A DNA stretch of 64,000 nucleotides from the NCBI RefSeq assembly GCF_001984175.1, contig NZ_MTQP01000059.1, positions 186,001 through 250,000 on the forward strand. Reading direction: 5' to 3'. The DNA is from Saccharothrix sp. ALI-22-I. GTDB taxonomy: Bacteria; Actinomycetota; Actinomycetes; Mycobacteriales; Pseudonocardiaceae. The notes under the pieces were generated by a model. The model did not search any database. It was not told where the DNA came from and saw only the letters and a program-made list of their open reading frames with translations. Below, one piece after another: positions 14,884-16,411 of this stretch. Position 1 is the stretch's first letter, and each line of letters opens with the position of its first letter. The position numbers were made by a program, and so were the translations under genes.

Positions 14884-15034
14884 GGTCATGAGTGCCAGCG
14901 CTAAGCCCGGGTTTGCTGGCCGGCAACCCTCCTACCGCGGTGGGGTGCCCCCGGTGAGGACCTGGCCTGGCGCGCAGGGCGCCCGGCAAGCGCGGGCTCC
15001 CTCTCCGGTGGGGTCCCGGACCCCGGAGGGCGTC
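14884..15034 (+). promoter_or_regulatory. SAM-IV riboswitch with ribosome-site-sequestering hairpin
   Basis: The sequence follows the SAM-IV consensus from end to end: GGTCATGAGTGCCAGCG (14884-14900), GCTGGCCGGCAACCCTCC, CCGCGGTGGGGTGCCCCC, then GAGGACC (14957-14962 region) closing P1, and the 3' segment CCGGCAAGCGCGGGCTC ending near 14999. Downstream, GGGGTCC/GGACCCC (about 15010-15024) and CTCC/GGAG form a hairpin that takes in the ribosome site GGAGGG (15025-15030). SAM binding should therefore reduce translation of the aminotransferase. The aptamer identity is very secure; the platform is inferred. Confidence 0.93.
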
Positions 15035-16411
15035 ATGACCGTCGCAGTTCCCCGAATCCCCGTCAGCCTGGAGACCCTTCCCCGGGAAAAGTCGGCCCAG
15101 GAAAAGCTTGCCCAGGAAAAGTGGGCACTGCCCCGAGTCGTGGGCGCCGCGCTGCGCGTGCCGCTGGTGACCGGTGAGCGCGTCGAGTACGCCAACCTCG
15201 ACCACGCGGCCAGCGCGCCCTGTCTGGAGCAGGTCCGCGACGCCGTGGACGAGCTGCTGCCCTGGTACGCCAGCGTGCACCGGGGCGCGGGCTTCGCCTC
15301 CCAGGTCAGCACGAAGGTCTACGAGCAGGCCCGCACGTCGGTCCGCCGCTTCCTCGGCGCCCGCGAGAGCGACGCCGTCGTCTTCACCCGCAACACCACC
15401 GACGCGCTGAACCTGCTGGCCAAGAGCCTGCCCAAGCACACCGCCGTGATCCTGTTCGACACCGAGCACCACGCCGCGCTGCTGCCGTGGCGCGGCCCGA
15501 ACGTGCGCCGCCTGCGCACTCCGGCCGCACCCGCCGGGGCGGTGTCGGCGCTGGACCGGGCCCTGGGCGAGGCCCCCGTCGGCCCGCGCCTGGTCGTGGT
15601 GACCGGGGCGTCGAACGTGACCGGTGAGGTGTGGCCGGTGGCCGAGCTGGCCCGGGTGGCCCGCCGGCACGGCGCACGGATCGCCCTGGACGCCGCCCAG
15701 CTCGCACCGCACCGGCCGGTGGACGTGCGCGCGCTCGACGTGGACTACACCGTGCTGTCCGGGCACAAGATCTACGCGCCGTTCGGCGCCGGTGTGCTGG
15801 TCGGCCGGTCCGACTGGTTGCAGGCCGCCGAGCCGTACCTGGTGGGCGGCGGCGCGACGGCCCGCGTCACCGACCACGGCGACCGGCTGGGCGTGGCCTG
15901 GTCCGCGGTGCCCGAGCGGCACGAAGCCGGCACGCCGAACGTGGTGGGCGTGCACGCGCTGGCCGTGGCCTGCGACGTGCTGGGCCGGCACTGGGCGCAG
16001 ACCGCCGCGCACGAGCGCGCGCTCCTGGCGCGGCTGCGGGAGGGGCTCAAGACCGTTCCCGGCGTGCACGAGCTGGCGTTGTTCGGCGCGGACCAGGACC
16101 GGGTGGGCGTGGTGAGCTTCACCGTCGGCGGTCAGGACGTCGGCTACCTGGCCGCGGCGCTGTCCGCCGAGCACGGCATCGGCGTGCGTGACGGCGCGTT
16201 CTGCGCCCACGTGGCCGTGCACCGACTCGCGTACGGCGAGCGCGCGCTGCGTGCGTCCATCGGCCTGGGCACCACCGAGGAGCACGTGGACCGTTTCGTG
16301 GCCGCGCTGCGCACGCTCGTCACCGAGGGCTCGCGGTGGGAGTACGAACTTCAGAACGGTCGTTGGGTCCCGCTGAACGACGAGCGCGCGCTCCCGCCGT
16401 TCCTGCGCTGA
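15035..16411 (+). CDS. class V aminotransferase-fold PLP enzyme under SAM-IV control
   Basis: A 458-residue PLP-dependent enzyme of the cysteine desulfurase/class V fold. Key segments are [74 protein letters not shown] and the PLP-lysine motif [17 protein letters not shown] (about 240-256). A Cys in [12 protein letters not shown] fits a desulfurase-like loop. Regulation by a SAM riboswitch points to sulfur amino-acid metabolism, but the substrate is unknown. The N-terminus has three 5-residue repeats ([15 protein letters not shown]). The ATG has GGAGGG 4 nt upstream. Confidence 0.85.

What the first reader, a model, noticed from the sequence alone, without database searches (positions are those of the whole stretch)
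14884..16411. SAM-IV riboswitch controls a class V aminotransferase-fold enzyme
The leader matches the SAM-IV consensus through both pseudoknot ends, and a hairpin can hide the ribosome site. The enzyme has a desulfurase-like fold but no assigned substrate. SAM-repressed expression makes a sulfur salvage or methionine-linked reaction likely.
Basis: partly seen in the sequence, partly recalled or inferred. Interest (0 to 1): 0.72.

Follow-up and report, generated by a model that had tools for sequence, protein, structure and literature searches.

The report
SAM riboswitch before a cysteine desulfurase
An RNA switch that senses S-adenosylmethionine sits in front of a gene for a sulfur-releasing enzyme in a soil actinomycete; the pairing is real and already in print, but it points to a still unexplained way in which many antibiotic-producing bacteria may make methionine.

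Summary
Confirmed: a full-length SAM-IV riboswitch (102.9 bits, cut-off 38) lies at 14884-14998, directly before a 458-aa class V PLP enzyme (15035-16411). It is the only SAM-IV found in this 10.3-Mb Saccharothrix-like genome. In orthologous leaders pseudoknot PK-1, absent from the Rfam model, pairs in 55 of 55 distinct aptamers with two-sided changes; a hairpin buries the ribosome site.

The enzyme is a SufS-like cysteine desulfurase of its own clade: 118 of 118 orthologs keep the PLP lysine, persulfide cysteine and substrate arginines. In a class-wide sample 71 of 75 orthologs have SAM-IV next to them. The pairing is in print for Streptomyces.

What looks new is the role. This genome lacks MetA, MetX, MetY and DUF39. 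Its two S-boxes precede a MetNQ-like transporter and a threonine-synthase paralog (ThrC2). Across 177 genomes ThrC2 always has an S-box (119 of 119), mostly a CysO-like carrier gene beside it (at least 90), and occurs in 60 of 62 genomes without MetX/MetY. I propose that the desulfurase feeds a ThrC2/carrier route to homocysteine. This link is inferred; 56 of 119 ThrC2 genomes lack this desulfurase.

The parts
14884..14998 (+). SAM-IV riboswitch aptamer (RF00634)
   Evidence: 102.9 bits, full model 1-116; only SAM-IV found in the genome
14907..14911 (+). PK-1 5' strand (CCGGG)
   Evidence: pairs with 14950-14954; 55 of 55 distinct aptamers paired, 3 of 5 pairs with changes on both sides
14950..14954 (+). 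PK-1 3' strand (CCCGG)
14935..14939 (+). PK-2 5' strand (CCGCG, P3 side)
   Evidence: pairs with 14991-14995; invariant in 55 of 55, so conserved but no covariation
14991..14995 (+). PK-2 3' strand (CGCGG)
14999..15030 (+). expression-platform hairpin that pairs the Shine-Dalgarno
   Evidence: fold of 14990-15050; site better buried than with shuffled linkers in 56 of 64 distinct leaders
15025..15030 (+). Shine-Dalgarno GGAGGG
   Evidence: sequence, coordinates
15035..16411 (+). class V PLP enzyme, SufS-like cysteine desulfurase, 458 aa
   Evidence: Pfam Aminotran_5 260.6 bits; SufS model 260.6 bits, below its 475.1 cut-off; AlphaFold model pLDDT 87.6 matches SufS structures
15767..15769 (+). 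codon of Lys245 (PLP lysine, SGHK)
   Evidence: aligned with SufS Lys226; invariant in all 119 rows
16202..16204 (+). codon of Cys390 (persulfide cysteine, GAFCAH)
   Evidence: aligned with SufS Cys364; invariant in all 119 rows

Best explanation
The leader is a SAM-IV riboswitch that lowers expression of a dedicated cysteine desulfurase when S-adenosylmethionine is plentiful. With SAM bound the aptamer keeps its 3' strand in PK-2 and the downstream hairpin hides the ribosome site; in some relatives premature transcription ends may add to this. The enzyme takes sulfur from L-cysteine onto its own Cys390 as a persulfide and releases alanine. Most likely this sulfur is meant for homocysteine: it is passed, probably through an activating protein with a rhodanese domain, to a CysO-like carrier as a thiocarboxylate. 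A SAM-repressed threonine-synthase paralog (ThrC2, under an S-box) would then use that carrier to replace the phosphate of O-phosphohomoserine, just as CysM uses CysO thiocarboxylate on O-phosphoserine (recalled). SHOWN by computation: aptamer, covariation, catalytic residues, regulon composition, and complementarity of ThrC2 with MetX/MetY. INFERRED: SAM repression, L-cysteine as substrate, the carrier as acceptor, and the ThrC2 reaction.
For: SAM-IV 102.9 bits. PK-1 covariation. Ribosome-site burial. 118 of 118 orthologs keep His145, His146, Lys245, Arg385, Cys390 and Arg406. Nearest PDB sequence and fold matches are SufS. The orthologs form one clade, 100/100, apart from 21 other desulfurase-like proteins. 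71 of 75 orthologs in 177 genomes have SAM-IV within 900 nt, and 34 of 39 listed SAM-IV sites in MetX/MetY-less genomes belong to this gene. Own genome: no MetX or MetY, no MetA, no DUF39; its S-boxes precede ThrC2 and a MetN-like, permease, MetQ-like transporter. G198 has SAM-IV, desulfurase, a CysQ-like gene, cysD, cysN in a row. ThrC2: S-box next to it in 119 of 119 genomes, carrier gene next to it in at least 90; neither MetXY nor ThrC2 in only 2 of 177 genomes against 20.3 expected. The carrier's best PDB match is 3dwg_C, the small partner of a cysteine synthase (CysO by recall). The own genome has a cluster of a JAB-domain, a ThiS-family and a CysK/CysM-family gene.
Against: 56 of 119 ThrC2 genomes lack this desulfurase and 12 of 75 orthologs occur without ThrC2, so neither needs the other. 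They are not neighbours: same contig in 18 of 63 shared genomes, nearest 16 kb apart in G298. 41 of 75 ortholog genomes also have MetX or MetY. In the own genome no carrier gene follows ThrC2. A review describes transsulfuration, not this route, in Streptomyces (PMC11356490, passages). For the window's own leader, folding predicts a buried ribosome site in both states (0.005 and 0.016 unpaired), so the switching step is not reproduced there. Counts are not corrected for phylogeny. No assay.
Confidence: 0.45

Rival explanations
1. SAM-repressed cysteine desulfurase that releases sulfur or sulfide from cysteine for homocysteine or sulfate assimilation in general, without a ThrC2/carrier partner (for instance for MetZ with a rhodanese, for MetY, or as back-flow from cysteine when methionine is short).
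For: 12 of 75 orthologs lie in genomes without ThrC2, all with MetX and/or MetY. The gene is followed on the same strand by cysD-cysN in G198 and G188 and by cysN in G207. SAM-IV precedes a rhodanese-domain ORF in G008 and G049, in G008 followed by MetZ.
Against: In MetX/MetY-less genomes, such as the window's own, none of the acceptor enzymes searched (MetX/MetY, MetA, DUF39) is present; MetZ and cystathionine gamma-synthase were not searched across genomes.
Confidence: 0.3
2. A general desulfurase for Fe-S clusters, thiamine or other thio-cofactors, as the S. lividans annotation says (thiamine metabolism), that happens to be under SAM control.
For: SufS-type sequence and fold; annotation 'Cysteine desulfurase (Thiamine metabolism)' in PMC8079986.
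Against: Below the SufS cut-off (260.6 against 475.1 bits) and a separate clade. Each of the 75 ortholog genomes shows three or more class V matches, so other desulfurase-like proteins are at hand. SAM control of an Fe-S or thiamine donor has no evident logic.
Confidence: 0.13
3. A PLP enzyme on the same scaffold with another reaction (C-S lyase on cystathionine or cystine, cysteine sulfinate desulfinase, selenocysteine lyase), used for sulfur salvage.
For: Related folds catalyse such reactions; C-S lyase chains and the EgtE and SclA models also match.
Against: The persulfide cysteine and its loop (GxFCAH), Arg385 and Arg406 are invariant in 118 of 118; C-S lyase and EgtE matches are far weaker than SufS. 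Some true desulfurases also act on selenocysteine or cysteine sulfinate, so this is not excluded.
Confidence: 0.12

Closest known systems
SAM-IV riboswitch (RF00634)
   Same: Full-length match, both pseudoknots, 5' leader of a sulfur gene; cryo-EM description read as passages of PMC6890682
   Different: Nothing seen in the aptamer; the regulated gene differs from the metXY targets named in PMC4239095 (passage)
SAM-IV / cysteine desulfurase pair SLIV_26975 of S. lividans and SAM-IV / class V enzyme CRV15_21540 of S. clavuligerus
   Same: Same riboswitch before a gene described in the same words; in print 2021 (PMC8079986, PMC8269248; passages read)
   Different: Those papers assign thiamine metabolism or no pathway. 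Their sequences were not fetched, so orthology with the window gene is inferred from the description and from the many SAM-IV-linked orthologs in large class genomes
SufS/CsdA group II cysteine desulfurases (E. coli SufS, 1i29/5db5)
   Same: Fold, PLP lysine, persulfide cysteine, substrate arginines
   Different: 32 per cent identity to 5db5, below the SufS cut-off, own clade, conserved tail residue (Tyr437 in 114 of 119 rows), no suf genes next to it in the window
CysO/CysM cysteine pathway of M. tuberculosis (names and chemistry recalled)
   Same: ThiS-family carrier and a PLP enzyme acting on an O-phospho amino acid (carrier matches 3dwg_C)
   Different: Here the PLP enzyme is threonine-synthase-like and under a SAM riboswitch; product would be homocysteine
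Wolinella HcyS/MetY thiocarboxylate homocysteine route (recalled, no paper read)
   Same: Would use a carrier thiocarboxylate to make homocysteine
   Different: ThrC2 is not MetY-like; no HcyS cluster sought
Desulfurase genes in methionine regulons elsewhere: metB-csd (S. pneumoniae, PMC5359408), csd under MetJ in Vibrionales (PMC4239095)
   Same: A gene called csd that follows methionine status (passages)
   Different: Protein regulators, other enzymes; PMC5359408 places Csd at cystathionine to homocysteine

Membership tests
SAM-IV riboswitch | Covariance-model score above gathering cut-off, full length | tested here: met
   102.9 against 38 bits, 1-116 of 116
SAM-IV riboswitch | PK-1 between P2b loop and the strand before P1 3' | tested here: met
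   55 of 55 distinct aptamers paired, three pairs with two-sided changes
SAM-IV riboswitch | PK-2 between P3 and the 3' end | tested here: met
   55 of 55 paired but invariant
SAM-IV riboswitch | Binds SAM and lowers expression | not testable with these tools
   needs in-line probing and reporters
Group II cysteine desulfurase | Class V fold with PLP lysine | tested here: met
   Lys245 aligned with SufS Lys226; invariant; SufS folds best
Group II cysteine desulfurase | Persulfide cysteine and substrate arginine | tested here: met
   Cys390 on Cys364, Arg406 on Arg379; invariant
Group II cysteine desulfurase | Releases alanine and forms a persulfide from L-cysteine | not testable with these tools
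   no assay
SufS subfamily (TIGR01979) | Score above curated cut-off | tested here: not met
   260.6 against 475.1 bits; separate clade
Family 2A encapsulin cargo desulfurase (NF041166) | Score above curated cut-off | tested here: not met
   223 against 800 bits
MetX/MetY direct sulfhydrylation | MetX and MetY in the genome | tested here: not met
   own genome: MetX best 29 bits; MetY best E 4.9e-62, where intact copies elsewhere score 593 bits or more
CysO-type carrier pathway | ThiS-family carrier gene beside the PLP enzyme | tested here: inconclusive
   at least 90 of 119 ThrC2 genomes yes; own genome none after ThrC2, but a JAB/ThiS/CysK-M-family cluster elsewhere

The most novel reading that the evidence does not exclude
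Actinomycetes without MetA, MetX and MetY make homocysteine by an undescribed route: a threonine-synthase paralog (ThrC2, always under an S-box in the sample) takes O-phosphohomoserine and a CysO-like carrier thiocarboxylate, and the SAM-IV-controlled desulfurase of this window is its dedicated sulfur donor. Two different SAM riboswitch classes thus gate the acceptor enzyme and the sulfur donor of one pathway.
Probability: 0.35. Interest if true: 0.85.

Novelty: new variant of a known kind. Interest (0 to 1): 0.6.

Why it matters
A 2024 review states that S. [quoted passage not shown] The SAM-riboswitch regulon found here names concrete genes for it: the desulfurase of this window and ThrC2 with its carrier. 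This makes the question directly testable with three deletions and one enzyme assay. It would also add another natural use of carrier thiocarboxylates in amino acid synthesis and would correct the present S. lividans annotations (thiamine metabolism, threonine biosynthesis).

Tried and rejected
Intrinsic terminator after the aptamer: none found. Hairpin energy as proof: rejected, z -0.32; replaced by the conservation test. A PK-2-tail/anti-sequestrator switch: over 76 leaders freeing the PK-2 strand opens the site only modestly (0.156 to 0.265 unpaired, higher in 58 of 76), and not in the window itself, so it is left as possible. Idea that this enzyme replaces MetX/MetY: rejected, 41 of 75 ortholog genomes have MetX or MetY; ThrC2 shows that pattern instead. 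Aspartate-semialdehyde route (DUF39): 0 of 177. MetA: 4 of 177. Carrier gene after ThrC2 in the own genome: not found. Literature on ThrC2/carrier homocysteine synthesis: none seen in the listings of searches of the held open-access library; the main SAM-IV paper (Weinberg 2008) is not held. Ten second, weaker ThrC-like hits were listed for other MetX/MetY-less genomes, none for the own genome in the capped list.

How rows were counted: MetX present = 313 bits or more, plus one contig-end fragment (G303, 149 bits). Counted absent: G207 (92 bits, fragment) and four near full-length matches of 138-164 bits (G161, G181, G242, G310), which might be acyltransferases of related function. MetY present = over its cut-off, plus G281 (404 bits, split). 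Orthologs = 269 bits or more with 51 per cent identity or more, plus G309 (fragment, 182.5 bits, 55 per cent); the 44-47 per cent relatives in G154 and G167 were left out. Genome-wide RNA searches over 40 genomes used stricter filters, which lose weak matches. Of 81 leaders (80 relatives and the own), 76 were used; L043, L051, L052, L054 and L060 did not match the search motif and were not scanned. The 119 protein rows hold the window's protein twice (L082), so 118 genes. The tree used 60 of 140 proteins in hand, with long-branch warnings for three paralogs; the structure alignment 28. Carrier adjacency was counted from 93 places of a capped list, hence a lower bound.

Full report
OBSERVATION. 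It is the only SAM-IV found in the 10,300,059-base genome in which the window lies. The gene begins at ATG 15035 behind GGAGGG (15025-15030) and ends at 16411, 458 aa. The nearest named relatives are Saccharothrix species (83-93 per cent identity; 94 per cent over 446 columns to S. deserti among the rows of the tree).

THE RNA IS UNDER SELECTION IN THIS VERY GENE FAMILY. I took the leaders of 76 of 81 loci, the own one included; the 11 loci that I gave to cmscan, chosen because a simple motif had missed their start, score 103-115 bits in 11 of 11. PK-1 and PK-2 are not part of the Rfam model's pairing. In 55 distinct aptamers all five PK-1 pairs hold in 55 of 55, and three of them vary on both sides (for instance C-G, G-C, A-U and U-A at one pair); PK-2 is paired in 55 of 55 but never varies, so it tells nothing by covariation.

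EXPRESSION PLATFORM. Directly after the aptamer a hairpin (14999-15004 with 15025-15030, 15010-15015 with 15019-15024) takes up the Shine-Dalgarno. Its energy is ordinary for such GC-rich sequence (z -0.32). But in 64 distinct leaders the site is unpaired with mean probability 0.154, against 0.315 when the linker is shuffled, lower in 56 of 64. Letting the whole leader fold freely opens the site further in 49 of 64 (mean 0.238 against 0.154). Against this: in the window's own leader the site stays closed in both computations (0.005 and 0.016). No intrinsic terminator was found, while in S. clavuligerus a premature transcript was reported for a like arrangement (PMC8269248, passage). So repression by SAM is inferred from the class; the switching step itself is not shown.

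THE ENZYME. Pfam gives Aminotran_5, 260.6 bits. NCBIfam's best model is the SufS subfamily, 260.6 bits, below its cut-off of 475.1; all 22 NCBIfam matches lie below their cut-offs. The nearest PDB sequences are E. coli SufS; the AlphaFold model (mean pLDDT 87.6) matches cysteine desulfurases in all 50 rows listed, some of them titled selenocysteine lyase or CsdB. In the alignment with SufS, Lys245 lies on Lys226, Cys390 on Cys364, Arg385 on Arg359, Arg406 on Arg379 and His145 on His123 (numbering counted from its alignment). These five and His146 are kept in all 119 rows, that is 118 ortholog genes with the window's own. The orthologs form one side of a 100/100 branch against 21 other desulfurase-like proteins. 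It is therefore a cysteine desulfurase by every residue test made, but not a SufS by the curated cut-off.

HOW TIGHTLY SWITCH AND GENE GO TOGETHER. In a phylum-wide draw of 149 genomes protein matches fall into two sets: nine at 397 bits or more (own included), then nothing above 200 bits. Seven of the nine have SAM-IV upstream; in the other two (G007, G094), outside the class, no SAM-IV was found. In a class-wide draw of 177 genomes I count 75 orthologs; 71 have a listed SAM-IV within 900 nt. Of the other four, three genomes show none (G208, G226, G260) and one (G211) has SAM-IV whose place was not listed.

THE PAIRING IS IN PRINT. PMC8079986 (passages) lists SAM-IV before SLIV_26975, 'Cysteine desulfurase (Thiamine metabolism)', in S. 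lividans TK24; PMC8269248 (passages) reports SAM-IV before a class V aminotransferase-fold enzyme in S. clavuligerus. So the pairing is not new; its pathway is unassigned or assigned to thiamine.

WHAT ELSE SAM CONTROLS IN THIS GENOME. The S. lividans table also lists an S-box before 'threonine biosynthesis' genes. I therefore searched RF00162: 123 of 177 genomes have it. The window's genome has two S-boxes. One precedes a threonine-synthase-like gene, here called ThrC2; the other precedes a MetN-like, a permease and a MetQ-like gene, each best matched by such models though MetN and MetQ stay below the curated cut-offs. In 30 of 30 S-box loci examined the next gene is ThrC2, all 30 with STGNLA where the threonine synthase of the printed alignment has STGNTS. 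By protein search ThrC2 is present in 119 of 177 genomes, with a clear gap (519 bits or more against about 220 or less). All 119 have an S-box next to it, and 119 of the 127 listed S-boxes lie next to ThrC2. In at least 90 of 119 genomes a ThiS-family carrier gene is next to ThrC2; those that I read end in Gly-Gly. The G023 carrier's best PDB match is 3dwg_C, solved with a cysteine synthase (it is CysO of M. tuberculosis by recall). In the window's genome no carrier follows ThrC2, but a cluster of a JAB-domain gene, a ThiS-family gene and a CysK/CysM-family gene lies on another contig.

THE GAP THAT THIS WOULD FILL. The window's genome has no MetX (best 29 bits), no MetY, no MetA and no DUF39. 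A review says that S. [quoted passage not shown] Of 62 genomes without MetX and MetY, 60 have ThrC2; of 115 with either, 59 do (Fisher 3e-11, related genomes). Neither is found in 2 of 177 genomes where 20.3 would be expected by chance; in ten families that hold both states, 48 of 48 MetX/MetY-less genomes have ThrC2; of 53 genomes in families without ThrC2, 52 have MetX or MetY. This is the pattern of two alternative routes to one product. The desulfurase itself does not show it so (34 of 62 against 41 of 115) but is enriched with ThrC2 (63 of 75 ortholog genomes against 56 of 102 others). In MetX/MetY-less genomes 34 of 39 listed SAM-IV sites belong to it.

OPERON EVIDENCE FOR SULFUR ASSIMILATION. 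In G198 the order is SAM-IV, desulfurase, a CysQ-like gene (Pfam inositol monophosphatase family, best NCBIfam model CysQ below its cut-off), cysD (read from the frame), cysN. G188 has cysD and cysN, and G207 has cysN, on the same strand downstream. In G008 SAM-IV precedes a rhodanese-domain ORF and MetZ (754.5 bits), in G049 a rhodanese-domain ORF.

MECHANISM. I propose: low SAM opens both switches; the desulfurase makes a persulfide from cysteine; the sulfur reaches a CysO-like carrier as thiocarboxylate; ThrC2 replaces the phosphate of O-phosphohomoserine with it. The analogy is the CysM/CysO reaction on O-phosphoserine (recalled). A threonine-synthase descendant that uses a sulfur nucleophile has a precedent in cysteate synthase, known to me here from a title in the reference list of PMC12068725; the cysteate synthase model also matches ThrC2 weakly (76.7 bits). 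Steps shown: presence, conservation, regulon and co-occurrence. Steps inferred: all chemistry.

WHAT SPEAKS AGAINST.

VERDICT. The larger reading, a SAM-gated sulfur donor for an undescribed homocysteine route, is testable and I give it 0.35; that the enzyme is a SAM-controlled cysteine desulfurase serving sulfur amino acids in some way I hold at about 0.75, the sum of the best explanation and the first rival. No paper stating the ThrC2/carrier route was seen in the listings of searches.

Noticed in passing
L252 (G000:C58:226341-227753), and 119 genomes: Threonine-synthase paralog ThrC2 is preceded by an S-box SAM riboswitch in 119 of 119 genomes and followed or flanked by a CysO-like carrier gene in at least 90; candidate homocysteine synthase.
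   Followed up: partly
G049:C75:67592-67960 (L263): An S-box on the minus strand and a SAM-IV on the plus strand lie about 165 nt apart: two SAM riboswitch classes in one divergent region.
   Followed up: no
G178:C16:1956-2291 (L284): Two divergent SAM-IV riboswitches about 100 nt apart; one faces the desulfurase, the other an ORF of 423 aa that was not identified.
   Followed up: no
L205, L207 (G049, G008): SAM-IV precedes a rhodanese-domain ORF, in G008 followed by MetZ.
   Followed up: partly
L198, L199, L200, L201, L202, L203: Further SAM-IV sites in large genomes precede ORFs that look, by eye only, like ABC transporters or solute-binding proteins; substrates unknown.
   Followed up: no
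L028:5525-5638 (Actinosynnema pretiosum): Here the SAM-IV lies about 290 nt further from the conserved part of the enzyme than in its relatives, so the N-terminal region may be longer.
   Followed up: no
G007:C3 (L275): An ortholog outside the class without SAM-IV overlaps a downstream ORF of 640 aa, lipoprotein-like by eye, by 4 nt.
   Followed up: no
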